DNA of 23,085 bases from a bacterium (GTDB lineage: Bacteria; CSSED10-310; JAJRTK01), in the NCBI GenBank assembly GCA_024278345.1, contig JAJRTK010000425.1:1-23085 (forward strand), in the 5' to 3' direction. This document shows positions 136 through 22,875 of the stretch, piece after piece; within the stretch, counting starts at the first letter, position 1; each line of letters starts with the position of its first letter. The notes under the pieces are model-generated. The model saw only the letters and a program-made list of their open reading frames with translations, ran no database searches and was not told where the DNA came from. The translations under genes and the position numbers were made by a program.

Positions 136-289
136 GGGACCTATCAAATCCCCGCGTTTTTGCTTTGCACTCCGCGGTGCCGCCCTGGTGGCACCGGCAT
201 CTTGCCGGTGGCGGGCTGGACGGGATTCACGGAATTGAACGGTGGGTTCCTTTCGTGCGTGGACTTGTCAACCGGATCTGATAGGTCCC
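136..289. mobile_element. Family A MITE-like element, copy 1 (154 bp)
   Basis: The element begins GGGACCTATCA and ends TGATAGGTCCC, so its ends are inverted repeats. It is flanked by perfect 8-bp direct repeats ATTCAGGT at 128-135 and 290-297, the footprint of a transposition event. It is exactly 154 bp, like the other three copies, but its middle is the most diverged. It keeps the internal hairpin CACCGGCATCTTGCCGGTG and the right-end block GTCAACCGGATCTGATAGG. No coding potential is seen, so mobilisation would need a transposase encoded elsewhere. The right target duplication contains the stop codon of the neighbouring cyclase gene. Confidence 0.88.
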
Positions 290-291
290 AT

Positions 292-1572
292 TCAGGTAAT
301 TCCGTGGTCGCTTCGGGGAGCGTCTTCCTTCCCTTCACCCACCAGCCACCAGGTCGTCATTTTGCCCTTGTTCTTCACCTCGATCTCTCCCCGAAGCTCG
401 AACTGGAACTGCCCGTTCAGACGCAGCCGGACGGCACTGCTCACTTGGATTCGCCCGGGTTTTCCGTGGGATTCCATCCGCGACGCCACGTTCACCGTGT
501 CCCCCCACACGTCGTATTGAAAACGCTTCATCCCGATGACCCCGGCAACGACGGGTCCCGTGTGCAGGCCCACCCGGATCTCCAGGTCGGGACCAGCCCG
601 CTCCCGAAGCTCCACCATCTTCAAAAGCATTGCCAGAGCGGTCCTCGCTGCCGCCTCCACATGGTTCTTCCCGGGTTCCGGCAGACCGGCAACGGCCATG
701 TACGCGTCTCCGATGGTTTTGATCTTCTCCAGGCCGTGGGTCGAGATTAGCTCGTCGAAGACCGTGAACATCGCGTCGAGAGATTCCACGACCTCCGATG
801 GAGATCGGTCGGCAGAGAAGCTCGTGAAACCGACGATATCGGCAAAGAGAACGGTGACTTCGGGAATCCGATCCGCGATGGGCTCTTCCCCCGCCTTCAA
901 CCGTTCCGCGATGGACGCGGGAAGGATATTCAAAAGCAGCCCCTCGGACTTGGCCTTTTCCCATGCCAGAGCTGCCTGGCCAAGATATTCTCGCCGCCGA
1001 AGCCGAGATCCCCAGATTCCCGCGAGGCCCGCGATCATGGATGCGAAAAGGAGGAACATGACGTGGGTCGCCCAGGTGGCCGCTGAGTAGGGCCCGGCAC
1101 CTGGGGCCGAAACCAGGAGATCGGCAGCCCAAACGCTCAGGGTTGTCGCCAGGATCTCATGCCATTCCATGGGAAAGAGAAGGACGGCACCCACCATGAC
1201 GAGCATTTGTCCCACGAAATAAGGGGATTCAAGGCCTCCCGTAACCCGCGCCGCCGTCGCCACATCCAGCGCGACGCCTCCAGAGAGGATCAAGGCCAAA
1301 AGAGGCGCCTGCTGAGCCCGTTGTTCTCGCCATGCTACGAGAGCCGCCGCCACCGCGTAGAGACCGACCAGCGTCCGAATCGCCGTGGTGGCGGCGAAGA
1401 CCTCCGGCTCTACAAAGACGGTGACCAGGGCATCGGCCAGGAACAAGACCGCCACCAACGGACCCGTTCGGACCAGGCCCGAAGCGATCAGCTTGTGCCG
1501 GTGTTTTCGATACTCGGCAAGAGCTTGCTTCTTACCACGACGACCAACTCCGTGTCGCACTCTGTTGCCCAT
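292..1572 (-). CDS. Membrane-bound class III adenylate cyclase
   Basis: This 426-residue protein probably converts ATP to cyclic AMP at the inner membrane. Residues about 33-190 hold roughly six hydrophobic segments and 215-412 form a class III cyclase domain. The metal-binding aspartates are D245 (in FADIVGFT) and D289 (in TIGDAYM). K285 and D354 occupy the base-recognition positions typical of adenylate rather than guanylate cyclases, and N361 and R365 (NVASRM) are the transition-state residues. All catalytic positions are present, so activity is expected. The start has a GGAG seven bases upstream. It lies 38 bp after the Cdd1-like gene and is likely co-transcribed with it. No HAMP or recognised ligand-sensing domain is evident; the membrane part may be the sensor. 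The stop codon sits inside the target duplication of the family A element. Confidence 0.9.
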   Translation of the reverse strand: MGNRVRHGVGRRGKKQALAEYRKHRHKLIASGLVRTGPLVAVLFLADALVTVFVEPEVFAATTAIRTLVGLYAVAAALVAWREQRAQQAPLLALILSGGVALDVATAARVTGGLESPYFVGQMLVMVGAVLLFPMEWHEILATTLSVWAADLLVSAPGAGPYSAATWATHVMFLLFASMIAGLAGIWGSRLRRREYLGQAALAWEKAKSEGLLLNILPASIAERLKAGEEPIADRIPEVTVLFADIVGFTSFSADRSPSEVVESLDAMFTVFDELISTHGLEKIKTIGDAYMAVAGLPEPGKNHVEAAARTALAMLLKMVELRERAGPDLEIRVGLHTGPVVAGVIGMKRFQYDVWGDTVNVASRMESHGKPGRIQVSSAVRLRLNGQFQFELRGEIEVKNKGKMTTWWLVGEGKEDAPRSDHGIT

Positions 1573-1610
1573 CGTCTTGCTCCAGCGGTCACTTTACGCT
1601 TTCCCGGCTT

Positions 1611-1895
1611 TCACTTACCTTTCGCCGCCGCCTTCCGGAGCCGCGACCAAGTCCACCAGTTGGCCTTTTCCGCCGGAAGCTCCGGATCCCGCGCCTGGGC
1701 TACCGCTGCCTGAAAAACGTCCAGACAACAGATGTCCACACGGCTCCCCCGAAGAGAACAGAGCCGTTGGTAGAGCTCCTCCGGGTCAGATTCCGCCAGG
1801 GCCTCCACGGTTTCGATCCCCAAAAGCTCGAAGTCCTTCACCGTCGCTGGACCTACCGACCGCAAATCCAGGAGCCGCCGCTCATCGCCACTCAT
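1611..1895 (-). CDS. Cdd1-type helix-hairpin-helix protein
   Basis: This 94-residue protein matches the 'pathogenicity locus' (Cdd1) family from memory. It has an N-terminal helix-hairpin-helix-like stretch (SVGPATVKDFELLGIETVEALA, about residues 13-34; DLRSVG at the front), then DPEELYQRLC at about 37-46, a short Cys-containing stretch (VDICCLDVF) and a tryptophan-rich end (NWWTW). Such proteins may bind DNA, but their function is not established. The ATG overlaps the TGA stop of the upstream VOC gene as ATGA, indicating translational coupling. The length fits the family. Confidence 0.75.
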   Translation of the reverse strand: MSGDERRLLDLRSVGPATVKDFELLGIETVEALAESDPEELYQRLCSLRGSRVDICCLDVFQAAVAQARDPELPAEKANWWTWSRLRKAAAKGK

Positions 1896-2278
1896 TTCTC
1901 GGCCTTGATGGCAAAAACCACCACCTGGCCCCCTGGTTCCCGGAACGCGATCTCCCGCATCCCGTAGAAGGTTGTCCGCTCTGGCACCACGATCTCCGCG
2001 CTCTTCGCCAGGTTGCGCAGAGGTTCAAGGTCGTCTACCTCGATATAGAGCATTGCGGAGGATTGCTGGGACGTCGTGGGCAGGCTCAGGTCCTCCTTCA
2101 TGCTTCCGTGGGTCTGGAGCATGATTTCCAGACCGTCCCGCTCCAGCCCGACAAAGCCGAGCTTATCTCCTGCGGGCACCTCCATGGTCTTCTTGAACCG
2201 AAGTCCATCCACCCAAAACTCCAACGAAGGCTCGATGGTGGTCACGTAAAGGATCGGGGTGAGCTTTTTCATCCGCAT
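1892..2278 (-). CDS. VOC-superfamily (glyoxalase/bleomycin-resistance fold) protein
   Basis: The 128-residue sequence has two beta-alpha-beta-beta-beta modules. The first starts at LTPILYVTTIEPSLEFWVD and the second at SAMLYIEVDDLEPLRNL, ending in REIAFREPGGQVVVF, the usual C-terminal strand of the fold. The histidine expected on the first strand of metal-dependent glyoxalase I is absent, so it is more likely a bleomycin-resistance-type or other VOC protein of unknown substrate. AAGGAAA lies about seven bases before the ATG. It overlaps the Cdd1-like gene by 4 bp and probably heads a three-gene unit with the cyclase. Confidence 0.8.
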   Translation of the reverse strand: MRMKKLTPILYVTTIEPSLEFWVDGLRFKKTMEVPAGDKLGFVGLERDGLEIMLQTHGSMKEDLSLPTTSQQSSAMLYIEVDDLEPLRNLAKSAEIVVPERTTFYGMREIAFREPGGQVVVFAIKAEK

Positions 2279-2317
2279 AACTAGTTTCCTTTCGGAGGCT
2301 TTCAGATTCTGATGCGG

Positions 2318-2372
2318 CTCGCCATTGCCGCCGCTTTCGATCCACTGCCCGAAGGCTGGAGCACCACCAGAA
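2318..2372. repeat. Family D repeat fragment, about 55 bp
   Basis: This block reads CTCGCCATTGCCGCCGCTTT, then CGATCCACTG, then GGCTGGAGCACCACC. It recurs with a few substitutions at 6287-6343. It fills most of the 117-bp spacer between purA and the VOC gene. No terminal inverted repeat or target duplication could be identified, so its mobility is unproven. Confidence 0.5.
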
Positions 2373-2395
2373 GTGTGGCGTAGCTTGCATTTTTT

Positions 2396-3673
2396 TCAAC
2401 GCCGCCACGGGTCGTTGAGCACCTGAAGACTGGAGCGATCCGGGCCTGTCGAGACCAAAGAGATCGGCACCCGCACAGTGTCAGCGACGAAGTCTAGAAA
2501 TTTCTTGGCGGGCTCTGGAAGCCTTTCCCCTGGCCCCGTCAGCACGGGCCAGCCTTGGAGCTCCCGGTAGATCGGTTGGCAATGCTCCAGATCCGAGGGA
2601 TCCGCCGGGGGCGAATCGATTTCTCGGCCATGGAGGCGGTAGGCCACGCAGGATTTCACCGAGGGGAATCCACCCAGCACGTCGATCTTCGTCATGGCCA
2701 GGGAATCGATGCCGCTGAGTCTCACGGCGTGGCGGAGTGCCACCAGATCGAGCCATCCGCACCGCCGTGGACGGCCCGTGGTCGCCCCGTATTCCTTGCC
2801 GGCTCGGCGTAGCGCCTCTCCCATCTCCCCGAGTTCCTCCGTGGGGAACCACCCAGCCCCTACGCGAGTCGTATAGGCTTTCGTGATACCCAGGGCCTCC
2901 TCCACTGCCTTCGGCGGGATCCCAAGCCCCGGGGCGATTCCCGCCGTGGTCGTGTTGGAGGAGGTCACGTAGGGATAAGTCCCGTGGTCCACGTCCAGCA
3001 TCATTCCCTGGGCACCCTCGAAAAGGATTCCGCCGCCTTCCTCGATTTGCCGCAAAAGCATGCCCGAGACATCCGCCACACAGGGCTCCAACCGCGGCCG
3101 GATCTCCTCGAAGTCCCGAATCATCCCCTCCGGCGTCGGAAGGGGCTCGTCCGATTTCTCCAGGAGCGGCCCCAGCCAGTCCAGAGCGGCCTCGATCTTC
3201 TCTCGTAAACGTGCCGGTGCCAGAAGATCGCCCACGAGGATCCCGTGGCGGGTCGCCTTGGACGCATAACACGGCCCGATGCCGCGCCTGGTCGTTCCGA
3301 TGGAACTCGATCTCCGGCGCTCGGCCAGCCCGTCCAGAATGCGGTGATACGGCATGACCACGTGGGCCCTGGTGCTCACGAAAACCCGGCCCAGCCAATC
3401 GACTCCGGCCTCCGACAACTGGTCCAGTTCCACGAGAAACGCGGCCGGATCGAAGACGACACCATTACCAAGGACGCACCGGAGTCCCCGCCGGAGGATC
3501 CCCGCTGGAACCAGGTGGAAAACGAATTTGCGACCGCCCTCCACGACGGTGTGCCCGGCATTGGCGCCGCCTTGGTAGCGGGCTACGATGGAAGCCTCCG
3601 CCGCCAGGGTATCGACAATTTTCGCCTTGCCTTCATCGCCCCACTGGGCGCCTACGACAGCCAGATTCTTCAA
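2396..3673 (-). CDS. purA: Adenylosuccinate synthetase
   Basis: PurA joins IMP and aspartate using GTP in the first committed step from IMP to AMP. I place the start at a TTG (3671-3673) with GGAGG eight bases upstream. This gives 425 residues and puts D13, K16 and H41 at the canonical family positions. Other motifs are GNGVVFDP, TTRRGIGPCY, the GAQG loop before DVDHGTYPYVTSSNTTT, YTTRVGAGWFPTE, the GTP-binding TKIDVLGGFP and the C-terminal STGPDRS. Residue 17, usually glycine in the GDEGKGK loop, is alanine (GDEGKAK). The frame stays open further upstream, but that stretch crosses a hairpin-array element. It lies downstream of serA on the same strand, separated by two mobile elements. Confidence 0.96.
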   Translation of the reverse strand: MKNLAVVGAQWGDEGKAKIVDTLAAEASIVARYQGGANAGHTVVEGGRKFVFHLVPAGILRRGLRCVLGNGVVFDPAAFLVELDQLSEAGVDWLGRVFVSTRAHVVMPYHRILDGLAERRRSSSIGTTRRGIGPCYASKATRHGILVGDLLAPARLREKIEAALDWLGPLLEKSDEPLPTPEGMIRDFEEIRPRLEPCVADVSGMLLRQIEEGGGILFEGAQGMMLDVDHGTYPYVTSSNTTTAGIAPGLGIPPKAVEEALGITKAYTTRVGAGWFPTEELGEMGEALRRAGKEYGATTGRPRRCGWLDLVALRHAVRLSGIDSLAMTKIDVLGGFPSVKSCVAYRLHGREIDSPPADPSDLEHCQPIYRELQGWPVLTGPGERLPEPAKKFLDFVADTVRVPISLVSTGPDRSSLQVLNDPWRR

Positions 3674-3747
3674 GGTTGGAGCCTCCGTGTGAGCCGGTCC
3701 CCATCGCGGGATTTTCCGGAAGTGGGGAACGGCCTGTTTGTGGAGAA

Positions 3748-4027
3748 GGGGCATCCACGCAAGGCGGGACAGAACAGGAAACAAAATGTGAAGCGTACAA
3801 AAAATGTGGGTCCAGGGAGCTAGCTCCCTGGTGGGCGCGGGGCGAAGCCCTGACAGGGGACCGGGGCCGGAGTCCCCGGACCACCGCCGGGTAACGCGAG
3901 GCGTGACCCTTCGAGTCACGCAAACGTGACCCTTCGAGTCACGCAAACGTGACCCGCCGAGCGGAGCGCGGCGTTGTCCGAAGCCAAGTTTTTTTCCGAG
4001 CCATTGTCCCGCCTTGCGTGGATACCC
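3748..4027. mobile_element. Family C hairpin-array element, copy 1 (280 bp)
   Basis: The ends are 23-bp inverted repeats with one mismatch: GGGCATCCACGCAAGGCGGG from 3749, against a right end finishing CTTGCGTGGATACCC at 4027. TGGAGAA is directly repeated at 3741-3747 and 4028-4034, a 7-bp target duplication. Inside are successive hairpins: 3812-3831 (9-bp stem CCAGGGAGC/GCTCCCTGG), 3839-3850 (GGGC/GCCC around GAA), 3861-3879 (CCGGGG/CCCCGG) and two tandem hairpins at 3902-3947. There is no convincing ORF. It occupies the region directly upstream of purA. Confidence 0.85.
3902..3947. repeat. Two tandem 23-bp hairpin units
   Basis: The unit CGTGACCCTTCGAGTCACGC plus AAA occurs twice back to back without a mismatch, followed by a partial third unit CGTGACCC. 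Each unit is itself a hairpin (GTGAC/GTCAC). The equivalent place in copy 2 (near 10486-10500) has only a single CGTGACCC, so the duplication is specific to this copy. Confidence 0.85.
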
Positions 4028-4043
4028 TGGAGAAAAAAGATTC

Positions 4044-4197
4044 GGGACCTATCAAATTGTCGTGTTTTTGCTTTACAATTTTCTTCGCCGAAACGGTGGC
4101 ACCGGCATCTTGCCGGTCTAGCGCCCTCCGGGCTGCACGGAGCCGGGAAGGAGGCCCGCCCCAGCGGTGATGTTGTCAACCGGATCTGATAGGTCCC
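4044..4197. mobile_element. Family A MITE-like element, copy 2 (154 bp)
   Basis: It starts GGGACCTATCA and ends TGATAGGTCCC, flanked by perfect 8-bp direct repeats AAAGATTC at 4036-4043 and 4198-4205. The interior closely matches copies 3 and 4, including ACGGTGGCACCGGCATCTTG and GGGAAGGAGGCCCGCCCCAG. It inserted 9 bp from the right end of the family C copy, giving two independent insertions side by side in the serA-purA spacer. Confidence 0.92.
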
Positions 4198-4239
4198 AAA
4201 GATTCGGCTCGCAGCAAAGATCTCCCAGGTCCGACCTTC

Positions 4240-4345
4240 GGCCTCCATGCGGGTTTTTTGCAGCGGGCGCGGGATTGGAGGCGAGTGGCCCGCAGCGGAT
4301 GCGAGGGACGGGAGCGGAACGCAACCCAAAAAAAGATCGGCGGTT
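4240..4345 (-). repeat. Family D repeat copy, inverted relative to 8880
   Basis: Read on the minus strand, 4310-4327 is GGGTTGCGTTCCGCTCCC, an exact match to 8890-8907, followed about 21 bases later by CCACTCGCCT, as at 8930-8939. The intervening bases differ, so this is a diverged copy. It lies just downstream of the serA stop codon. No TIR or target duplication is recognised. Confidence 0.55.
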
Positions 4346-4400
4346 TAGTTTTTTTCTTCTCCCGAAGAGTGCCTCCAAGAGAAGTTCAAGCCGGGGTTGG

Positions 4401-5987
4401 TCAATCCAAGTGGACGAGAGTCGTCTCCAGGATTTCAGGGATGCTGAGAATCTCCTTGAGAAGGCCGTCATCGACGTCGGAGTCAAGATTCAGGATGGAG
4501 ACGGCCTCTTCGAGCTGATCGAGGCGACCGAGCTGCATTCTGGCAATGTTGATCTCGTACCGGCCAAGGAGAGAACCGAGCTTGCCGATGACGCCGGGCC
4601 GGTCAAGATTCCTGGAGATGAGCATGTACCTGCTGGGCGTCGCTTCCAGCAGGAACCCGTCCAACTCTACCAGACGAATTGCCCCGGATGAGAGGACTGT
4701 TCCCGCCAACGTTTTTTCGGCGCGATCCGTTCGGAGGCAGACCTTGATCCGGTCGGCGAACGGGCGAGCTGATGCCGTGTGAATCTCGCGGCTCTCGAGC
4801 CCGCGTTCCTTTGCAACGATGCCGGCATTGACCCGGTTGATCATGCCGCTTTGGAGGAACCGGCCCAGGATCGCCTCCAGGCAGCTATTGAGAACGAGCC
4901 CTTTTGGAAGACTCGCCGGAACACCGGCCAATTCCACTTCCAAGTGGGTTGGCCTTCCAAGGGTCATCTGGGCGCTGATGGAGGCGAGGGTCGAAGCCAG
5001 AATCACGTAATCCCGGGCCTTCGCCTCTGTCTCCGGATCGACCATGAGCAGGTTGACCGCATTCTTGTAGTCGGCCTCCAGGAGAGCATCGGCCACTTGC
5101 CGCGCCACTTGATCGGAGACTTTTTGCTGAGCCTCGTGGGTCGAGGCACCAAGATGTGGCGTGACGATGACATTCGGGTGCCGGACCAGCGGGTGGTCGG
5201 GCGGCGGCGGTTCCTGTTGGAGCACGTCGAGAGCCGCTCCGGCAAGTTTTCCCGATTCCAGAGCCTCGAGGACTGCCTCTTCGTCAATGAGGGCGCCCCG
5301 GGCGCAGTTGATGAGCATCGTTCCAGGTTTGACGTGGCGGAGGCTTTCCCGGTTGATGAGGTGCCGGGTCTTGGGGGTGGCCGGAGTGTGCAGGCTGATG
5401 TAGTCGCTTTCCGCAAGGAGCTCGTCCAGCTCCATGAGAGAGATCTTGTACCGCTCCGCGGTCTCGCGGGAGACAAAGGGATCGTAGGCGATGACCGCCA
5501 TGTCCAGCCGCTGCAGCCGGACGGCGACGCCCAGCCCGATCCGGCCCAGCCCCACGATCCCCGCCGTCTTGCCGAAGACTTCCCGCCCCACGAAGGCCTT
5601 CCGATTCCAGGCACCCGACCGCAGGGATGCCACTGCCTGAGGGATGTTCCGGGAAAGCGCCAGGAGCATGGCTACCGACAGTTCCGCCGTGGTGGTCGTG
5701 CTCGCCGATGGCGTGTTCATCACCACGATGCCGCGGCGGGTCGCCTCTTTGAGGTCCACGTTGTCCAAACCGATCCCGGCGCGACCAATCACCTTTAACC
5801 CCGTGGCCGCCGCGAGCACCTCCGAATCGATTGTCGATGAGCTCCGGATGATGACCGCGTCAGCCTCTTTCACGGCTTCGGCAAGATCCGGCCCCTTGAG
5901 GCCCAACCTTTCTTCCACCTCGAGCCCACGAAGCTTGAGGTAGTCCTTGGCTTGTTGGGTGATTCGATCCAGTATCACGACTTTCAT
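4401..5987 (-). CDS. serA: D-3-phosphoglycerate dehydrogenase, long form
   Basis: SerA oxidises 3-phosphoglycerate to 3-phosphohydroxypyruvate with NAD+, opening serine synthesis. Its 528 residues fit the long form with substrate-binding, NAD-binding, intervening (ASB-type) and ACT domains. The dinucleotide motif GLGRIG is at 146-151, and the catalytic triad is R230 (NCARGALIDE), E259 and H278 (TPHLGAST). The ACT domain covers about 453-528 (RPGVIGKLGSLLGRYEINIA) and is the usual site of serine feedback control. AAGGTGG precedes the ATG. The downstream spacer to purA is 727 bp of mobile and repetitive DNA, so read-through to purA is uncertain. Confidence 0.96.
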   Translation of the reverse strand: MKVVILDRITQQAKDYLKLRGLEVEERLGLKGPDLAEAVKEADAVIIRSSSTIDSEVLAAATGLKVIGRAGIGLDNVDLKEATRRGIVVMNTPSASTTTTAELSVAMLLALSRNIPQAVASLRSGAWNRKAFVGREVFGKTAGIVGLGRIGLGVAVRLQRLDMAVIAYDPFVSRETAERYKISLMELDELLAESDYISLHTPATPKTRHLINRESLRHVKPGTMLINCARGALIDEEAVLEALESGKLAGAALDVLQQEPPPPDHPLVRHPNVIVTPHLGASTHEAQQKVSDQVARQVADALLEADYKNAVNLLMVDPETEAKARDYVILASTLASISAQMTLGRPTHLEVELAGVPASLPKGLVLNSCLEAILGRFLQSGMINRVNAGIVAKERGLESREIHTASARPFADRIKVCLRTDRAEKTLAGTVLSSGAIRLVELDGFLLEATPSRYMLISRNLDRPGVIGKLGSLLGRYEINIARMQLGRLDQLEEAVSILNLDSDVDDGLLKEILSIPEILETTLVHLD

Positions 5988-6469
5988 GGGTCCACCTTGC
6001 TTCGAACGAGCAGGTCCGTTCCGCGGAGGTTCTTGGTTGATTCTTCCGGGTGGCCGAGGTTGTGTGCGTTGTCACACACCTTGCCAAGAAGCGACACCGA
6101 TTTGATAGGCCCGGGGGACCGAGCCTGTCAACCCCGGAGCTTTGATCAACATCTGGTGGCGAAATCCGATCGCGCTCTTCTCTTAGGGCATGAATCTCGG
6201 TAAACCCTTTGCTTTCGCTGTGTTACCTTCCGCTCCCATCGGTATCGACCCCTGCCTTTGGCACGAGTTCCCCCCAGCACCCGCTCCTCGCCACTGTCGC
6301 CGCTCTCGATCCACTGACCCCCAAGGCCGGAGCACCACCCGAAATCGGGAAAGATCTGCTTTTTCCACCATTTCCAATTCAAGAGATTTCAGCCGTTGGG
6401 TGATAGAGGATCTCGTAACCTACTGGTTTCAAAGACCTGAAGAATAGGCGCCAGTCTTGGGCCGGAGCA
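5988..6469. repeat. Divergent intergenic region with family D fragment at 6287-6343
   Basis: This is the upstream part of the 935-bp spacer between the divergent serA and TPR genes and must carry their promoters, although no convincing -35/-10 pair was identified. Bases 6287-6343 repeat the block at 2318-2372 (CGATCCACTG followed by GGCCGGAGCACCACC). Bases 6222-6236 (GTTACCTTCCGCTCC) resemble the D motif. No protein-coding gene is convincing here. Confidence 0.5.
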
Positions 6470-6477
6470 AAAAACCG

Positions 6478-6676
6478 GGCCTCGGTCATGGTACCGGCCA
6501 CCCGAAAAAAGCGCGCAGCGCACAAAGAGGGGTCCAGGGAGCTGGCTCCCTGTCGTGGGTCTGGGAGTGGCGCTCCCAGCGGAGGTCCGGAGGCAGAGCC
6601 TCCGCCGGGTTCCAGGGCTGGAAGCCCTGGGGCGGCGTTTGAAAAATGCACCGTGGCCGGTACCATGACCGAGGCC
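6478..6676. mobile_element. Family B hairpin-array element, copy 1 (199 bp)
   Basis: The ends are perfect 24-bp inverted repeats (6478-6501 and 6653-6676, beginning GGCCTCGGTCATGGTACCGG). AAAAACCG is directly repeated at 6470-6477 and 6677-6684, an 8-bp target duplication. Between the ends are four hairpins in a row: 6535-6552 (CAGGGAGC/GCTCCCTG), 6561-6579 (CTGGGAG/CTCCCAG), 6588-6604 (CGGAGGC/GCCTCCG, triloop AGA) and 6612-6630 (CCAGGGCT/AGCCCTGG, triloop GGA). Reading frames across it are by-products of this structure. Confidence 0.88.
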
Positions 6677-6922
6677 AAAAACCGGATGTGCCGAGAGTTC
6701 TCGTCTCGGCACCGGTCATCGCTGGCCGCCTTGCCAGCGAGCGCCTCCTTACCGGGTAGCTGCCGGGCGAAGTCCTGACCGACCACCGAGGCCCATCGTC
6801 TCCACTGGTTTCAGCGTTTCTCTGGCTTTCGTGGTAAGAAATCCCGGTGCCATTCTTTTCTGCAACCCGGCGCCTTGAACCTTGTTGAGGCTTTAACATG
6901 ACGTACCACCCAGGATAGGCTA

Positions 6923-8818
6923 ATGTTGCGAAAAAACCGATGGCTCATCGTTTTGACGGTGGCGTGGTCCGGATGCCGCATGGCTCCCCCGGAAGACCAA
7001 AACAAAACCCAGGTTCGCGTTCTCTCTTCGAGCCCCGCGCAAGACATCCGTGTGCAGGTCGTTAAACAGAATGACGAATCGAGGACTTTACTCGCCTACA
7101 TAAGAGCCGTCGAAGCCGAGCTGGATGCCCGTATGAGCGGCAGTGAAACCGAGGCGGTCAGGCTCCTTCAGCGAAGTATCCAGCAGTTAGAGGAAGTCGT
7201 GCGCCTGGGCTATGGAACCCTTCCGCTGCGCCTCAAAACTGCTTCTGGCCTGAGGTTCTTGGCGTCGCGCCAGTCCGACTCCGCGGTGCGAAAAAAACTC
7301 ATGGAACGAGCCGCCAAGCACTATTTCGAGGCACTGCGGGAGCATGGCGATTCTCACGAGGCCATGGAAGGCTATCTAACCATCGAAAGGGCCGTTCTTC
7401 GCACGCCTTTGAAGCAGACCATCAAAGTGTTCGAAGGTCTGGCACAAGAGAAGCCCGACGCCAGAGGCATTCGTTTTCGCCTGGGCGATCTCTACCTTGG
7501 CGCTGACAGACCAGACGAAGCGGCGAACCTGTTCGGAGAGCTCGCTGGGCAATACCCCAAGAATCCCAGGGTCTGGTACCAAAAGGGGCGCGCGGAATAC
7601 ACCCAAGGAAAATTTCAGGAGGCCTTGGCCTCTTTCGAAAAATCGACGCGCCTTCAAGGCGTCACCAGCGACATGTACGAAGCGCTTCGCGCGCAAGCCT
7701 CATGCCTCGTGGCCCTTGGCGAGCGACCCCGGGCTCAGGCCATTCTCGCACGCCTGGTGGCGGAACAGGAGAGCGTTGCCGAAAACTGGATTGAGTTGGC
7801 CAAATGGCATTTCCAGGGAAAGGATTACGACAGCACCCTCAAGGTGCTTGCCCGCGCCCTCAGCCTCAAACCGCGCAACTTTCTTGCCAATGTCCTCATG
7901 GGCCGGAGCTTCATGGCTCTGGGCCGCACCGATGAAGCCCTTAGCACTTACAAACGGCTCACCGTGATGTGGCCCGATCAGGCCCAAAGCTGGGCCATCC
8001 TAGGGGAAGCCCAGCTCAATACAGGACGGTTCGGGGATGCCGCTGACAGCTTGGTCCGCGCCAGAAAACTGCGGAGCGAAATGCAAAACGGCTTCCTTCT
8101 TGCCGAAGCTCTCAGGCTGGGGGGAAAGCTCAAACAAGCCGAAAAACTTCTCACCGAGCTCCTGGAACAGGCACCGGATGATTTCGACGTTTTGCGGACG
8201 CTCTTCTTCCTGAAACTCGACTTAGAGGAGTTTGGCAGCTCCTACGAAATCGCCCGCGGGCTCCACGATAAAAAGCCCAGTTTTCTGACCAACTACATGC
8301 TGGGCGCATCCCTGGAGCGTCTTGGCCGCCTCGACGAGTCCATCGTCTACCTCAAGCGCGCCATCGACGAAAAACCCGACTTCGCATCGGCCCGGAACTA
8401 CCTTGGTTACCTCTATGCCGAGCACGGGATTCACCTGGAAGAATCCATCCAGCAGATTGAGCTGGCCCTGGAAATCGATCCTGACAACGGCGCTTATCTC
8501 GACAGCCTTGGGTGGGCCTACTATCGCCTGGGTCGCCTCCAAGAAGCCCGACGGCAATTGGTTCGCGCCGTCGAAGCCCTGGATCGCGAAGGGGCCCCGG
8601 ATTCGGTCGTCTACGGCCATCTTGGAGATATCTATTTTGGGCTCTCCTGTTACGGAAAGGCTTTCGATGCCTGGAAGAGCGCCCTGAAGTTGGAGGAAGA
8701 CCCAAAACTGCGGCGAAGCCTCAAGAAGAAGCTCGGTCGATTGGAACTCAAGCAACCCTCACCCAGGGATTGTCAGCCATCCAAGGAAGAGGCCGTTTCT
8801 CCTACGGCCCTCCGATGA
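6923..8818 (+). CDS. TPR-repeat lipoprotein
   Basis: This 631-residue protein starts with a basic, hydrophobic signal (KNRWLIVLTVAWSGC) whose cysteine 18 could be lipidated, although tryptophan at -3 is unusual. From about residue 120 to 610 it is nearly continuous tetratricopeptide repeats, for example PDEAANLFGELAGQYPKNP, RLDESIVYLKRAIDEKPDF and NGAYLDSLGWAYYRLGRLQEA. It is probably a periplasmic scaffold anchored to a membrane. No enzyme domain is visible. AGGA lies seven bases before the ATG. In related gene orders a protein like this precedes the LolB/DUF4292 lipoprotein and ispE. Its partner and exact role are unknown. Confidence 0.85.
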   Translation: MLRKNRWLIVLTVAWSGCRMAPPEDQNKTQVRVLSSSPAQDIRVQVVKQNDESRTLLAYIRAVEAELDARMSGSETEAVRLLQRSIQQLEEVVRLGYGTLPLRLKTASGLRFLASRQSDSAVRKKLMERAAKHYFEALREHGDSHEAMEGYLTIERAVLRTPLKQTIKVFEGLAQEKPDARGIRFRLGDLYLGADRPDEAANLFGELAGQYPKNPRVWYQKGRAEYTQGKFQEALASFEKSTRLQGVTSDMYEALRAQASCLVALGERPRAQAILARLVAEQESVAENWIELAKWHFQGKDYDSTLKVLARALSLKPRNFLANVLMGRSFMALGRTDEALSTYKRLTVMWPDQAQSWAILGEAQLNTGRFGDAADSLVRARKLRSEMQNGFLLAEALRLGGKLKQAEKLLTELLEQAPDDFDVLRTLFFLKLDLEEFGSSYEIARGLHDKKPSFLTNYMLGASLERLGRLDESIVYLKRAIDEKPDFASARNYLGYLYAEHGIHLEESIQQIELALEIDPDNGAYLDSLGWAYYRLGRLQEARRQLVRAVEALDREGAPDSVVYGHLGDIYFGLSCYGKAFDAWKSALKLEEDPKLRRSLKKKLGRLELKQPSPRDCQPSKEEAVSPTALR

Positions 8819-8879
8819 GCCCCATCTTTGTCACCCCGGTTTTGCGCGGCCTTCGCCGAAGAATATCTTCGTGCCCCGT

Positions 8880-9060
8880 TTCTTTTCTTGGGTTGCGTTC
8901 CGCTCCCAGCGGCGGCAATCCGTCCGCCGCCACTCGCCTTCAGCCCATACTCCCCCCGTCCGCCAACCCTCGCCTTTCATCGCCCTGGACAGAGTTCGCC
9001 GCCCTGGAGGCGTGTCACCACGCCATTTCCGGCCGAACGGTCTTCTGGACGATCAGCAAC
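8880..9060 (+). repeat. Family D repeat mosaic
   Basis: The 276-bp gap between the TPR gene and the family A element contains no gene. It holds GGGTTGCGTTCCGCTCCC (8890-8907, inverted copy at 4310-4327), the hairpin GGCGGCAATCCGTCCGCCGC (8911-8930, relative at 24-44), CCACTCGCCT (8930-8939), and GCCTTTCATCGCCCTGGA (8972-8989, exact inverted match at 10112-10129). The pattern is a patchwork of short shared blocks rather than one clean element. Confidence 0.5.
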
Positions 9061-9094
9061 TTCCGGCTGAGATTCAGAAAGTAGAGTCCCCGAA

Positions 9095-9248
9095 GGGACC
9101 TATCACATTGTCGTGTTTTTGCTTTACAACTTTCTTCGCCAAAACGGTGGCACCGGCATCTTGCCGGTGTAGCGCCCTCCGGGCTGCACGGAGCCGGGAA
9201 GGAGGCCCGCCCCAGCGGTGATGTTGTCAACCGGATCTGATAGGTCTC
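9095..9248. mobile_element. Family A MITE-like element, copy 3 (154 bp)
   Basis: The left end is GGGACCTATCA and the right end TGATAGGTCTC, with one substitution in the terminal repeat. Perfect 8-bp direct repeats TCCCCGAA flank it at 9087-9094 and 9249-9256. The interior is nearly identical to copies 2 and 4. It sits 32 bp before the start of the LolB-like gene, so it separates that gene from any promoter further upstream. Confidence 0.92.
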
Positions 9249-9280
9249 TCCCCGAACACCGGAGAATCACGGAGAACGCC

Positions 9281-10078
9281 GTGGGAGCCAATCGCTTATT
9301 CGAGATCGGGAAGCCTGGTCTCTTGCTTGTGGGGATCTTGGTGCTGGGACTGTCAGCGTGCGGACGTGGCCACTCCGATCCTTTCGCGGCGCTACCCCTG
9401 GTTTCCCATTCGGTGTCGGCCGGATTCATCGATGCCGTTTCCCGGTACCGGAAAAGCCAACAGGGAATCGAGGCTTTGAGCGGTCGGTTTGTTGGCCGTG
9501 CCGTGGAGGGGCGGCGGAAGCGGAGCTTCAAGCAACTTTTCGCCCTCAAGCTTCCAGATTCCTTGAGAATAGAGATTGAGACACCCGTTGGACAGAGCCT
9601 TGCCCTCTTCGTATCAGATGGCGATTTCTTATTTTACAGGGAAAAGGGCCAAGATTCCCCCTGGTTTTCCAAAGCCAGCACCGCCGCGATGGAGCGCTGT
9701 TTCGGCTATCGGCTCGGCGTGGAAGAGTTGGTCAGGACGTTGGCTGGATGGATGGAACCCCTGGATCTAACGGTCGGAATGGCCGTTCGGCGGGCCGGTT
9801 CCGTTGTTTACTTGGCTAGCCGTGCAAGGCCAGGCCGCCTGGAATACGGATTTGACAAAGAGGGAGGTGTCTTGCGCTCAAGAACCTTTTACGGGTCCCA
9901 AGGAAAAAGACAAGTGGTGGTCCTCTATAGGGCTTTTACCGGTTCCCAAGGGCGGATTGCTCCCTCGCGGATTTTGATTCGCGACCTCCAAGGAGAAGGC
10001 TCCGTCGAGTTGGAGGCGGTGCGGTTGCGATTCAATCCCACTCTTTCGGACAGGGTGTTTTTGCCTCCGAAAAAGTGA
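9281..10078 (+). CDS. LolB/DUF4292-like outer-membrane lipoprotein
   Basis: I choose the GTG at 9281, preceded by GGAGAA, giving 265 residues; frames opening earlier start inside the family A element. The signal peptide ends in a perfect lipobox LSAC, with cysteine at residue 27. The mature part has a LolB-like beta-rich pattern (ALSGRFVGRAVEGRRKRSF, LRIEIETPVGQSLALFVSDG, FLFYREKG, then strands near the C-terminus). LolB proteins insert lipoproteins into the outer membrane, but sequence identity with true LolB looks weak, so DUF4292-type is the safer name. Position supports it: in related genomes this gene precedes ispE and tRNA-Gln. Here ispE is not found. Confidence 0.7.
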   Translation: MGANRLFEIGKPGLLLVGILVLGLSACGRGHSDPFAALPLVSHSVSAGFIDAVSRYRKSQQGIEALSGRFVGRAVEGRRKRSFKQLFALKLPDSLRIEIETPVGQSLALFVSDGDFLFYREKGQDSPWFSKASTAAMERCFGYRLGVEELVRTLAGWMEPLDLTVGMAVRRAGSVVYLASRARPGRLEYGFDKEGGVLRSRTFYGSQGKRQVVVLYRAFTGSQGRIAPSRILIRDLQGEGSVELEAVRLRFNPTLSDRVFLPPKK

Positions 10079-10111
10079 TGGAGGCAACTCTCCGAGGGCT
10101 CTTGCCATGGT

Positions 10112-10129
10112 TCCAGGGCGATGAAAGGC
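10112..10129 (-). repeat. Family D block, exact inverted copy of 8972-8989
   Basis: On the minus strand this reads GCCTTTCATCGCCCTGGA, identical to 8972-8989. It lies just after the LolB-like gene, in spacer sequence with no gene. The surrounding bases match less well. Confidence 0.5.
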
Positions 10130-10248
10130 CAGTGGCCCACCATTGGAGCGATGGCGACTCCGGCCGCGCGGAAAGCCTGCCAGGCTGCGCAAAGCTTGGC
10201 TCGAATCCCAAATGAAGATCGTGTGGCGCATTGCTCACTTCCCGGAAT

Positions 10249-10573
10249 GGGGTATCCACTTAGCCGGGACACACGGAAAAACCCCAAAAAGACGCGCAGC
10301 GTACAAAAACGTGGGTAAGGAGCCCGTTCACCGCAAGTTGCAACGGGAAATGAGCGCGCTCCCTGGTGCGTGCGGGGCGAAGCGCGTCCAACAGCTCGTT
10401 GGCCTGCGTCACGGTCGCGCTCCCTGGTGCGTGCGGGGCGAAGCCCTGCCAGGGGATGGAATCTCCGGACGACCGCCGGGTAACGCAAACGTGACCCGCC
10501 GAGCGACAGCGAGGCGTTGCCCGGACGCTTGCGATTCCACATCCCGGGAATGTCCCGCCTTGCGTGGATACCC
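10249..10573. mobile_element. Family C hairpin-array element, copy 2 (325 bp)
   Basis: The left end GGGGTATCCAC pairs with the right end GTGGATACCC, and the inner TIR (CCGGGACA at left, TGTCCCGCC at right) matches copy 1. CCGGAAT is directly repeated at 10242-10248 and 10574-10580, a 7-bp target duplication. Internal hairpins include CCCGTT/AACGGG (10323-10347) and GGGC/GCCC around GAA (10436-10447). A 29-bp direct repeat (10355-10383 and 10416-10444) shows internal duplication. It occupies the position where ispE would be expected. Confidence 0.83.
10355..10444. repeat. 29-bp perfect direct repeat inside family C copy 2
   Basis: The segment beginning CGCGCTCCCTGGTGCGTGCG and ending GGGGCGAAGC occurs at 10355-10383 and again at 10416-10444, offset by 61 bp. 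Between the two lies a short hairpin, CCAAC/GTTGG. Copy 1 has only one equivalent. Confidence 0.8.
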
Positions 10574-10753
10574 CCGGAATGCGAGGCCCCTATCCGGGAG
10601 GCTGATGCGCATCGCTTACTTCCCGGAATCCTTGGCCCCATCGAGTGTCGGGCGCAATCCGTCGCACCCTGTGCGGAGTCACGCGCAGACCGAAAAAAAA
10701 TCTAATTTTCTGGTTCGGAAGCCTATCCACAACAGGCTCCTGGTGACCTGTTG

Positions 10754-10783
10754 TTGATCTGTCCCGGTGGTTTGGCTTATAAA
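10754..10783 (+). promoter_or_regulatory. Possible sigma-70-type promoter for tRNA-Gln
   Basis: TTGATC (10754-10759) and TATAAA (10778-10783) are separated by 18 bases, about 110 bp upstream of the tRNA. The -10 is good and the -35 mediocre. It is the best candidate in the spacer, but it rests on consensus matching only. Confidence 0.3.
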
Positions 10784-10893
10784 AAGGCGGCAGTTTAGCC
10801 TCCTTTATCGCCCCCCCCTTTTGGGACCATTTACCGTGGCGGTCGCCTCTTGACGGCCTCATGCGGGGGGGAGGGAGTGCCCGGCTGTTTTGC

Positions 10894-10969
10894 AGGGGAG
10901 TGGCCAAGCGGTAAAGGCATCGGCCTTTGGAGCCGACATGCGCAGGTTCGAACCCTGCCTCCCCTGCCA
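10894..10969 (+). tRNA. tRNA-Gln (anticodon TTG)
   Basis: A full cloverleaf can be drawn. The acceptor stem is AGGGGAG/CTCCCCT, the anticodon stem TCGGC/GCCGA closes the loop CTTTGGA giving anticodon TTG (reads CAA), and the T arm is GCAGG-TTCGAAC-CCTGC. The discriminator is G and CCA is encoded at 10967-10969. The weak A1-U72 pair is usual for glutamine tRNAs. In many proteobacteria this gene sits between ispE and prs; neither is present here. Confidence 0.96.
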
Positions 10970-10974
10970 CATCC

Positions 10975-11105
10975 TTTTTCTGACGGCAACAGCATCAATG
11001 CCCCCTCAAACCTGGACCAGATTACGGCTCTTGCCACCGATATCGGTGCGGACATCAGATTCGTGACAGGATCCGTCTGCAAGGCCGTGGGCGAAGGCGG
11101 AATTG
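10975..11105 (+). pseudogene. Decayed fragment of mlaD (MCE domain end)
   Basis: This stretch aligns with the reverse complement of the intact mlaD around 21540-21675, corresponding to residues about 117-158. Both encode LDQITALATDIGADI and then VTGSV and AVGEG. In the 86 bp from TGGACCAGAT to GGGCGAAGGC I count 8 differences by eye (about 90% identity). Several change the residue (K to R, S to F, R to C, N to K), and there is a small deletion, so it is not under protein-level selection. It begins about 6 bp after the tRNA CCA end and has no MCE start or downstream part. I infer a partial duplication or rearrangement remnant. Confidence 0.85.
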
Positions 11106-11305
11106 GCGATGCGTAATGCCCGGGGGTGCCAACGTGGGGGGGACGATGCCGGCTTTCCATCGCTCGTTTCGCTTCAGGGGGGGAACGTCAAAACTACTCC
11201 TATTGGAGGGCTATGGCCGAGTAATGCACGACCATGGGTCTTGATAAGGTTTTTCCATATTGTGACAGACATGAATGAACGCTGAGTCAAGGCGCTGGTA
11301 GAAAG
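11106..11305. other. Spacer with no recognisable gene
   Basis: About 200 bp between the mlaD fragment and the next family A element. I see no coding pattern, tRNA or repeat. If the usual gene order applied, prs (ribose-phosphate pyrophosphokinase) would lie in this area, but none of its motifs is present. Confidence 0.6.
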
Positions 11306-11313
11306 GAACGAAG

Positions 11314-11467
11314 GGGACCTATCAAATTGTCGTGTTTTTGCTTTACAATTTTCTTCGCCGAAACGGTGGCACCGGCATCTTGCCGGTGTAGCGCCCTACG
11401 GGCTGCACGGAGCCGGGAAGGAGGCCCGCCCCAGCGGTGAAGTTGTCAACCGAATCTGATAGGTCTC
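11314..11467. mobile_element. Family A MITE-like element, copy 4 (154 bp)
   Basis: Left end GGGACCTATCA, right end TGATAGGTCTC. Flanking 8-mers are GAACGAAG (11306-11313) and GAACGGAG (11468-11475), a target duplication with one later substitution. The interior matches copies 2 and 3 with only scattered changes (for example GCGCCCTACGGG for GCGCCCTCCGGG). The mutated duplication suggests an older insertion than copies 2 or 3. Confidence 0.9.
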
Positions 11468-11551
11468 GAACGGAGGCCTTCCGAAAGCTCGCGGCGCAGG
11501 CATGGACTGCAATTCAAGGGAGCGGAATCCAAACTTTCAATACAGAAAACC

Positions 11552-13524: not shown

Positions 13525-13654
13525 CAAAGGGTAGCTTCTCTTCGAGGGGGCCAGGAGCTTTCCAGAGAAATGGCCTCCCGTTTTGCGGAGAGATGCTTCG
13601 CTCATCCCTGGTGGGCTCGGCTGCCAACGACTCTTATGGAGAATGGTGAAAACT

Positions 13655-16156
13655 ATGGGGAATGCAGCAGAAATACTGACGTACCTGGCGCCCTTGGTGG
13701 GGTTGGCCGGGTTGTTTTACGCCTACATGGTCTACCAATCGATCAACGAGATTAAGATTGTCGATAAGACCATGCTCGACCTTGCCCAGGCGATCCACGA
13801 TGGCGCCATGGTCTTCCTCAAGCGCGAATACAGCCGGTTGGCAATCTTTATCGTCATCGTTTTTGGTCTTCTGGCTACCTTCATAGGTGGGTGGACCGCT
13901 TTCGCCTTTCTCGTGGGAGCAAGCTGCTCCGCCGGTGCTGGAATTTTTGGGATGCGGGCTGCCACCCGGGCCAACGTCCGCACTGCCTTTGCTGCCAAAC
14001 AGGAAGCCGACGCCATCGCCAAGAAGGACGAAGCGCTGATCAAACAACTGTCGGGAAAGGCCCTGGCTGTAGCCTTCTCAGGCGGAAACGTCATGGGCAT
14101 GAGCATCGCGGGCCTTGGACTCATCGGTGTGAGTCTCTTCTACCTTTTTCTGGTCACCTGGCCGAGCAATCAGGCCATGGATTCCGCTTACTTCGACTTC
14201 GTTGTCCAGGTCTTGTCGGGATTTGCCATGGGTGCGAGCTCCATCGCCCTCTTCGCTCGTGTGGGCGGCGGCATCTATACGAAGGCAGCGGATGTCGGTG
14301 CGGACCTTGTGGGAAAAGTCGAAGCGGGAATTCCAGAAGACGATCCGCGGAACCCGGCGGTGATTGCCGACAACGTTGGTGACAACGTGGGCGACGTGGC
14401 GGGGATGGGCGCCGATCTCTTCGAATCTTACGTTGGCTCCATTATCGCAACCATCGCCATTGCCGCTACGGCGGACAAGATTGGGGGCGAGGCCTTGGCC
14501 GGAGTGGATGCCCGGATTGGCTTTATGTCCTTGCCCATAGTGCTCGTTACCTTGGGACTTGTGGCCTCTTTCTTTGGCAGCTTGTATGTCGATAAAAACA
14601 AAGAACGGGCTCCAGACAAAGTACTCCACGGTGCCACCGTGCAGGCCGCCCTCATCTTTTTGGGGGCTGCCCTCGTCGCATGTGCCGCCTTGGTCTGGTC
14701 CGTGGCATGGGCTGTTTTTGCGTCGATCCTTGTGGGAATGATCGGAGGTATCGCCATCGGCATGCTCACCGAGTATTACACATCAGATCACTACGGGCCG
14801 GTTCAAAACCTGGCAAAAGCCGCGACGACAGGCGCTGCAACAAATATCATCGCAGGCCTAGCCATCGGCATGCTCAGCACCGTGGGACCAGTTTTGATCA
14901 TCGTTAGCGCAATCTTGATAAGTTTCGTGACCACAGGACTTTACGGTATTGGCCTGGCGGCTGTTAGCATGTTGGCGACCATTGGTATTACCATGAGCGT
15001 CGATGCCTACGGACCAGTTGCGGACAACGGAGGCGGGATCGCGCAGATGGCGGGATTGGGAGCGGATACGCGGAAGATCACTGATCGTCTCGATTCGCTG
15101 GGGAATACGACTGCCGCCATGGGAAAAGGTTTTGCCATCGGTTCGGCTGCCTTGACGGCTTTGGCCATGTATTCGGCCTTTGGCCAAGCAGCAAGGATCA
15201 ACTCCATTGACCTCATGGATGTTTATGTCGTTGTCGGCCTCTTCATTGGCGGGATTCTGCCCTTCTTGTTGGCGGCATTGACCATGGAAGCCGTTGGAAA
15301 AGCAGCCCAGGACATGGTTGCCGAGGTCCGCCGGCAGTTCAAGGAAATTCCAGGATTGATGGAAGGCACGGCCAAGCCCGATTCAAATCGTTGCATCGCC
15401 ATTTCCACCGATGCCGCATTGCGGCAGATGATTCTGCCAGGCCTCATCGCAGTGGCTGCTCCCGTGGTCGTCGGATTTGGCCTTGGTGCCCACGGTCTCG
15501 GCGGAATGCTTGCCGGGGCTACCGTCACTGGAGTCTGCCTGGCCCTCATGATGGCCAATAGTGGTGGTGCGTGGGACAATGCAAAAAAACACATTGAAGA
15601 AGGTGCTTATGATGGCAAGGGAAGTCCGGCGCATGCCGCCGCGGTTGTGGGCGATACCGTGGGCGACCCCTTCAAAGATACCTCCGGGCCGTCCATGAAT
15701 ATCCTGATCAAGCTTATGAGTGTCGTGTCCCTGGTTATCGCACCGCTGTTGATCGTGGAAGGCGTGGCATCCTCCGATCCCGCCTCGCAGTCATCGGTGG
15801 CTCCGACGACTCAGGCGAGGCCATCTTCTACAACGACTTCCTCCTCTTCGCTTGGCCCTGGAAGCGGCGAAGCGGGAATGCCGGAGGCAGGGGCAAAACC
15901 GACGAAAGGTACCGAGCCATCGGTCCCCACCGCGGAAGACTCCTCCTCGCCGGGACCTGGAGGGAGTCAAGCTGGGATGCCAGAACCTGGCGCAAAACCG
16001 AGCACGGCGGGAGATTCCTCCGAACCCGGTGGCGCCCCAGCTTCTTCAGGGGGTGGCGGAGCCCCGCCAGTAAGCTCGCCTCTCACGGAGAAACCTCCAT
16101 CTTCCCCTGGCGACCCCGAAGCCTCTCCTAGTAGTAGCATGGGCGGCGACCGCTAG
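13655..16156 (+). CDS. hppA: Membrane-bound ion-pumping pyrophosphatase with C-terminal tail
   Basis: This integral membrane enzyme couples hydrolysis of pyrophosphate to outward ion pumping. Residues 1-700 are a complete family core with about 16 hydrophobic segments. The pyrophosphate site is [13 protein letters not shown] (213-225) with [12 protein letters not shown] (239-250), and the second acidic half-site is near 640-674 ([22 protein letters not shown]). [10 protein letters not shown] (483-492) has alanine where K+-independent enzymes have lysine, so a K+-dependent type is expected; whether H+ or Na+ is pumped is not decided. Residues 706-833 form an extra Ser/Pro/Gly-rich tail. The start is ATG 13655 by homology; GTG 13646 and ATG 13643 are alternatives. 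Confidence 0.95.
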
Positions 16157-22022: not shown

Positions 22023-22128
22023 TTTCCTAAACTCCGGCGCATATAAGGAGTGGATCCCACTGCGATAGGCATGAACTGCTCGGTCGTCAGTGTGACGAGC
22101 AATCGCTCCCCGCTGTGACGGGGGCGGC

Positions 22129-22875
22129 TTAGAAAACTCGAAACGGACCTTCTTCCGATCCGGTGATGAATTGCCGCACAATAGGGTTTTGCGTGTTGTG
22201 AATCTGCTCCGGCGTGCCTTGTTCGATGATCTTCCCATCATAGAGCAGCGCGATCTGATCCGCGATTTGATACGCGCTGGACATGTCATGGGTGATCGTG
22301 AACGATGTAACCTTGAGTTCCTGCTTCAGAAGGACGATTAGCTTGTTTATCACATCGCCCATGATGGGATCGAGCCCGGTTGTTGGCTCATCATACAGGA
22401 TGACCATTGGGTCCATGGCGATGGCGCGAGCCAGCCCCACTCGCTTTTTCATGCCGCCGCTTAGGTCGGAAGGCATTTTGTCTTCATACCCCTTCATTCC
22501 AACGAGCCGCAGTTTCTCAGAAGCGATTTCGCGAATCCCCGAGTCCGGCATCTTTGTGTGGTGTCGAAGCCCGAAACCCACATTCTCCCAGACCGAAAGC
22601 GAATCAAACAGGGCTGCTCCTTGAAACAGCATTCCCATTCGTTTCCGGAGGTTCATAAGCTCCGATGCCGACAGATCTGGGACGTTTCTTCCCGCTACCT
22701 GGACCACTCCTCGATCCGGGTGCAACAAGCCCATGATATGCTTCAAGGTGACTGATTTTCCCGTTCCGCTCCCCCCGATGAGCACAAGCGATTCGCCCGT
22801 TTTTACATGCAAATCGACTCCGCGGAGCACTTTCTTCGGGCCGAAGGCTTTGTAGATTTTTTTCAAGAGAATCAA
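22129..22875 (-). CDS. mlaF: MlaF-family ABC transporter ATP-binding protein
   Basis: MlaF powers phospholipid movement through MlaE. The TTG at 22873-22875 has GGAGG five bases upstream and gives 248 residues. Walker A is GGSGTGKS (34-41), the Q-loop Q85, the signature LSGGMKKR (138-145), Walker B VILYDEP with E163, and the switch H196 in ITHD. RKRMGMLFQGAALFDSLSV is typical of Mla ATPases. It is the first gene of the mlaF-mlaD unit. The region directly upstream is a family E element, so its promoter would lie in or beyond that repeat. Confidence 0.95.
   Translation of the reverse strand: MILLKKIYKAFGPKKVLRGVDLHVKTGESLVLIGGSGTGKSVTLKHIMGLLHPDRGVVQVAGRNVPDLSASELMNLRKRMGMLFQGAALFDSLSVWENVGFGLRHHTKMPDSGIREIASEKLRLVGMKGYEDKMPSDLSGGMKKRVGLARAIAMDPMVILYDEPTTGLDPIMGDVINKLIVLLKQELKVTSFTITHDMSSAYQIADQIALLYDGKIIEQGTPEQIHNTQNPIVRQFITGSEEGPFRVF

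What the first reader, a model, noticed from the sequence alone, without database searches (positions are those of the whole stretch)
136..11467. Four 154-bp MITE-like elements with 8-bp target duplications (family A)
Copies at 136-289, 4044-4197, 9095-9248 and 11314-11467 are all exactly 154 bp. They share the end GGGACCTATCA/TGATAGGTCYC and carry different flanking 8-mers duplicated on both sides: ATTCAGGT, AAAGATTC, TCCCCGAA, and GAACGAAG/GAACGGAG. This is direct evidence of transposition. They encode nothing, so a transposase acting in trans is implied. An 8-bp duplication with GG-starting ends is compatible with families such as ISL3 or IS256, but that link is inference.
Basis: partly seen in the sequence, partly recalled or inferred. 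Interest (0 to 1): 0.78.

Follow-up and report, generated by a model that had tools for sequence, protein, structure and literature searches.

The report
High-copy 154-bp MITE family, parent unknown
The four repeats are copies of a small non-coding jumping element that has spread about 200 times through the gaps between genes of one uncultured bacterium, moved by a transposase that could not be found in its genome assembly; it is a new family of a known kind of element.

Summary
In detail: four 154-bp repeats, each between 8-bp direct repeats (the fourth pair 7/8). In the window's own genome (6.06 Mb MAG, 87.9% complete) the family is abundant: 73 pairs of exact ends, 173 right-type ends, about 220 copies by density. 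Of 73 measured copies 59 are exactly 154 bp. Of the 70 with both flanks readable, 58 have an 8-bp duplication (51 perfect), all 58 different; swapping flanks between copies gives 3 of 4830. Insertions avoid coding sequence (2/64 coding-like against 65% of random sites). This is a MITE family moved in trans, most likely by a DDE transposase that makes 8-bp duplications. It has several subfamilies; a chimera of A and B, joined at a shared central hairpin, has itself transposed. It was not found in 59 other genomes, species-level genome contigs, plasmids or viral contigs. The parent IS was not found: IS256 and IS6 gave no match, and the ISL3, ISKra4 and IS1595 relics end in different repeats. The family link is therefore unresolved. 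It is a new member of a known kind, with two further MITE families (about 200 bp and 210-312 bp) in the same genome.

The parts
136..289 (+). MITE copy, subfamily B, 154 bp
   Evidence: TSD ATTCAGGT at 128-135 and 290-297 (the right copy holds the stop codon of the adenylate-cyclase-like ORF 292-1572 on the - strand)
4044..4197 (+). MITE copy, subfamily A, 154 bp
   Evidence: TSD AAAGATTC at 4036-4043 and 4198-4205; lies between purA-like and serA-like ORFs
9095..9248 (+). MITE copy, subfamily A, right end TGATAGGTCTC, 154 bp
   Evidence: TSD TCCCCGAA at 9087-9094 and 9249-9256; just upstream of a lipoprotein-like ORF
11314..11467 (+). MITE copy, subfamily A, right end TGATAGGTCTC, 154 bp
   Evidence: TSD GAACGAAG/GAACGGAG at 11306-11313 and 11468-11475 (7/8); between a tRNA gene and an L25-like ORF
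192..210 (.). central hairpin CACCGGCA-TCT-TGCCGGTG of copy 1
4100..4118 (.). central hairpin of copy 2 (outermost pair broken in this copy)
9151..9169 (.). central hairpin of copy 3
11370..11388 (.). central hairpin of copy 4
   Evidence: sequence; position by register

Best explanation
A high-copy family of MITEs. Each copy is a non-coding 154-bp element with 11-14-bp terminal inverted repeats (GGGACCTATCARAT) and a central hairpin. A DDE transposase acting in trans recognises the two ends, moves the element and inserts it by a staggered cut that leaves an 8-bp target duplication. Shown: ends, duplications, copy number, intergenic placement, independent transposition of several subfamilies and of a chimera. 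Inferred: the DDE mechanism, the trans action, and that the transposase is encoded by an IS with the same ends, either lost from the lineage or missing from the binned assembly. Placement between genes most likely reflects selection against gene-disrupting insertions.
For: 58/70 copies with >=7/8 matching 8-bp flanks (51 perfect), control 3/4830, all 58 duplications different. 73 exact end pairs, none for the reversed control pattern; 173 right-type ends; 36.5 copies per Mb in 0.79 Mb of contigs not chosen for carrying the element. 2/64 insertion sites coding-like against 65% of random sites at the same threshold. Subfamily A copies are 96.5% and B copies 97.5% alike but A and B only 70%: separate amplifications from different masters; the A|B chimera has five measured copies, four of them with readable, perfect and different duplications. 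Transposase relics of four IS families (ISL3, ISKra4, IS1595 and an ISAs1-like fragment) show that the genome has hosted IS elements.
Against: No autonomous partner with these ends was found in the roughly quarter of the genome read letter by letter, and the whole-genome family searches gave only transposases with other ends or none. A few copies lack a recognisable duplication.
Confidence: 0.95

Rival explanations
1. Narrower version on the parent: the elements are internal-deletion derivatives of an IS of the prokaryotic Mutator-like group (IS256, ISH6, ISLre2, ISAzba1/ISMich2/ISKra4), which makes 8- or 9-bp duplications and has terminal inverted repeats with a fixed terminal base.
For: 8-bp duplication and G-starting ends fit the group as described in PMC3942029 (8 or 9 bp DRs, 18-39-bp IRs, conserved terminal C). 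Broken ISKra4-like transposase genes are present.
Against: The ISKra4-like relics appear to end in GGGTGCGGCTCTTT, 7/25 positions identical to this element's end. IS256: no match. ISLre2: no match, but that control was silent. The insertion sites show no fixed-distance promoter motif.
Confidence: 0.35
2. Narrower version on the parent: the partner is of the ISL3 or IS1595 type (GG-starting ends, 8-bp duplications).
For: Relics of both are in the genome; terminal GG and 8-bp duplications are typical of both (own knowledge of ISfinder families).
Against: Their ends here are GGCTCTTCGCCATC (ISL3) and GGCTCTATATGCGATCC (IS1595), 10/25 and 6/25 positions identical to the MITE end.
Confidence: 0.3
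3. REP-like palindromes spread by a RAYT (tyrosine/HUH) transposase or by recombination, not by a DDE enzyme.
For: Intergenic, structured, high copy; central hairpin with compensated changes.
Against: Terminal inverted repeats and 8-bp duplications in 58/70 copies; HUH/RAYT elements do not duplicate the target (own knowledge).
Confidence: 0.02
4. The repeats are kept because they serve the host (structured RNA, transcription stop or regulatory site).
For: Folding z-scores -3.1 to -4.4; hairpin pairs kept with changes on both sides at two columns; intergenic placement.
Against: Terminal inverted repeats alone explain much of the folding energy; no promoter pattern and no terminator pattern inside the two copies examined; placement is equally explained by purifying selection; no Rfam family matches.
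Confidence: 0.1

Closest known systems
Chunjie (Geobacter uraniireducens) and QMITE2 (Coxiella burnetii), as described in PMC10969869
   Same: Bacterial MITEs of similar size (178-235 bp; about 190 bp) with TIRs and direct repeats, mostly intergenic, tens of copies, many partial
   Different: No sequence relation tested; here 59 of 73 measured copies keep exactly one length (154 bp) and the estimated copy number is higher
MITECca01 of Cardinium cOegib (PMC9769881)
   Same: Strain-specific, very abundant (169 copies), mostly intergenic and also inside other mobile elements
   Different: There the parental IS982-family IS is present with intact copies; here no parent was found
Correia element of Neisseria (PMC10969869)
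   Same: Non-coding element (204 bp) at more than 120 copies
   Different: Carries a sigma70-like promoter sequence; none was detected here

Membership tests
MITE (non-autonomous IS derivative) | Short, no transposase, multiple copies | tested here: met
   154 bp; 73 strict end pairs and about 220 copies estimated
MITE (non-autonomous IS derivative) | Terminal inverted repeats | tested here: met
   GGGACCTATCA(R)AT at both ends
MITE (non-autonomous IS derivative) | Target-site duplication, different at each site | tested here: met
   8 bp, 58/70 copies, 58 different sequences
MITE (non-autonomous IS derivative) | Shares ends with an identified autonomous IS (helpful, not required by all authors) | tested here: inconclusive
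   No IS with these ends found, but the assembly is incomplete and only about a quarter was read letter by letter
IS256 derivative | IS256-type transposase (PF00872) in the genome | tested here: not met
   0 matches; the control found it in 6 of 14 genomes
ISL3 derivative | Ends shared with the genome's ISL3 elements | tested here: not met
   ISL3 relic on C5 ends GGCTCTTCGCCATC
IS1595 derivative | Ends shared with the genome's IS1595 elements | tested here: not met
   GGCTCTATATGCGATCC at both relics
ISKra4 derivative | Ends shared with the genome's ISKra4-like elements | tested here: not met
   GGGTGCGGCTCTTTYT beside two relics; boundaries inferred from fragments on two contigs
IS6 derivative | IS6-type transposase (PF13610) in the genome | tested here: not met
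   0 matches; control positive
ISLre2 derivative | PF06782 transposase in the genome | tested here: inconclusive
   0 matches, but no control genome gave one either

The most novel reading that the evidence does not exclude
The subfamilies A, B and C (A and B about 30% diverged) kept the same 154-bp length and a central hairpin with compensated changes because the folded core is needed, either for a transposition complex of an undescribed transposase family or as a structure used by the host.
Probability: 0.12. Interest if true: 0.55.

Novelty: new member of a known kind. Interest (0 to 1): 0.36.

Why it matters
It is an abundant MITE family with well-kept duplications in a deep lineage of uncultured bacteria, one of at least three such families in a genome where every transposase gene examined is a fragment. 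It offers a clean case for asking how non-autonomous elements outnumber or outlive their transposase source, and how new masters arise by recombination between subfamilies at a shared hairpin. For annotation it explains many assembly breaks: 17 of 29 copies in an unselected contig sample lie within 25 bp of a contig end.

Tried and rejected
(1) An IS1595 transposase 3' end fused to half an element on C16 (L067:1-232) first looked like the parent; comparison with C322 and C295 showed the same transposase without it, so it is a truncated insertion into an IS1595. (2) A triple GGGACCTATTATTTTT repeat on C239 looked like an IS end but lies upstream of an ordinary ORF. (3) Scans for the ends elsewhere: genome contigs, plasmids, viral contigs, 385 other genomes with up to 3 mismatches (three single matches, taken as chance, not followed up). 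(4) Promoter-targeted insertion as in ISLre2/ISKra4: no motif at a fixed distance; only a weak A-(not C)-T preference at -12 to -10 on the left side. (5) Exchange of flanks between copies as the cause of missing duplications: no convincing case. (6) Strict length requirement: 130- and 162-bp variants also have perfect duplications.

Full report
OBSERVATION. The four copies, their coordinates, length, ends and flanking 8-mers are as reported. The repeat finder groups them as one family (D1), with the first copy only 68% identical to the reference; it belongs to a second subfamily.

GENOME SCALE. The window is contig 364 of a 6.06-Mb assembly (550 contigs, 87.9% complete). A search with the 154-bp copy returned 40 scored matches, all 97-100% identical, out of 270 first-look candidates. 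A pattern requiring both exact ends at the right spacing found 73 elements and none for the reversed control. Right-type ends (25 bp, up to 3 mismatches) number 173. In 78 contigs (0.79 Mb) picked by number, not for carrying the element, there are 29 copies, 36.5 per Mb, which scales to about 220 for the assembly; this is an extrapolation.

TARGET DUPLICATION. Of 73 copies whose two ends could be placed, 59 are exactly 154 bp. Of 70 with both flanks readable, 51 have identical and 58 have at least 7/8 identical 8-mers on the two sides; lengths 4-7 and 9-12 give almost nothing; combining the left flank of one copy with the right flank of another gives 3 of 4830. The 58 duplications are all different. 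This shows insertion by staggered cutting with an 8-bp offset.

PLACEMENT. With a codon-usage score trained on long ORFs of the sample, 2 of 64 reconstructed empty sites look coding, against 65% of random sites. The score is home-made, but the contrast is large. In the window the insertions lie between genes; in the first, the duplicated 8-mer contains the stop codon of the neighbouring ORF, so its product is not changed. A weak target preference (A, not C, T at -12 to -10) is seen on the left side only.

SUBFAMILIES. Diagnostic halves define A (37 copies of 73), B (16), C (2), D (3) and an A|B chimera (5); ten copies were left unassigned by this simple rule, several of them plain variants of A. 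A and B average 70% identity without gaps, while copies within each are 96.5% and 97.5% alike. The chimera switches from A to B at the central hairpin; four of its five copies have readable flanks, all with perfect and different duplications, so it transposes as a unit. Variants of 130, 151 and 162 bp also keep perfect duplications.

STRUCTURE. The copy at 4044 (both strands) and the copy at 136 fold better than shuffles (z -3.1, -4.4, -4.4), in part because of the inverted ends. In an alignment of 18 diverse copies the central stem CACCGGCA/TGCCGGTG is kept, with both sides changed at two stem columns (C-G to A-U in four sequences, A-U to G-C in one). The covariation term is small, and relatedness among copies was not corrected for. 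The core GGCATCTTGCC occurs almost only inside the element in the sampled DNA (88 of 92).

TAXONOMIC RANGE. No match in 59 other genomes, including seven of the same phylum, none of the paired pattern in genome contigs (that collection may leave out the window's own genome), none in plasmids or viral contigs. The ends with up to 3 mismatches occur singly in three of 385 other genomes, which I take as chance. The nearest DnaB relatives found are only up to 47% identical, so the host is a deep lineage.

TRANSPOSASE. No element with these ends and a transposase was seen in the sampled contigs. Whole-genome family searches: ISL3 (PF01610) fragments on C5 and C395, the former with a classical GGCTCTTC-type end and interrupted by another MITE; IS256 none; DDE_Tnp_1 one fragment at a contig start; ISKra4-like, broken genes below cut-off; IS1595 two fragments; IS6 none; ISLre2 none, with a silent control. 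Ends of the ISL3, ISKra4 and IS1595 relics do not match the MITE. The smallest contig seen is about 2.7 kb and contigs break at the MITE, so a multi-copy IS of 1-2 kb could be missing from the bin; its absence here is weak evidence of loss.

VERDICT. A real, high-copy MITE family with an unidentified transposase. Prokaryotic Mutator-like elements also make 8-9-bp duplications (PMC3942029), so that group is one candidate; ISL3 and IS1595 types are others. The kind of element is well known (PMC10969869, PMC9769881), hence a moderate interest score.

Noticed in passing
window 6478-6676: Second MITE family: 199-201 bp, ends GGCCTCGGTCATGGTACCGGCCAC, with the 8-bp duplication AAAAACCG on both sides; 9 end pairs in the sample, perfect 8-bp duplications in 4 of 8 with readable flanks and a 9-bp one in another; one copy sits inside an ISL3 transposase gene.
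   Followed up: partly
window 3749-4027: Third MITE family: 210-312 bp, ends GGGTATCCACGCAAGGCGGGACA, 22 end pairs in the sample, 8-9-bp duplications in some; the window copy's right duplication directly abuts the left duplication of the element at 4044. Its interior resembles that of the second family.
   Followed up: partly
window 10252-10572: Probable further copy of the third family, by eye: a GGGTATCCACTTAGCCGGGACA-like start and a TGTCCCGCCTTGCGTGGATACCC end.
   Followed up: no
window 11001-11099 and 21545-21643: 99-nt inverted duplication (89%): a fragment of the mlaD-like gene (ORF 20301-22289, - strand) is repeated just downstream of the tRNA gene.
   Followed up: no
window 13583-16156: H+-pyrophosphatase-like ORF with a long Pro/Ser/Gly-rich C-terminal tail.
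   Followed up: no
L079:65-160, L148:130-156, L067:6508-6540: Elements of the 154-bp family interrupted by members of other repeat families, two of them at the same GTTTTT stretch.
   Followed up: partly
L157:7970-8015 (C239): Three tandem copies of GGGACCTATTATTTTT directly upstream of an ORF with a ribosome-binding-site-like sequence.
   Followed up: no
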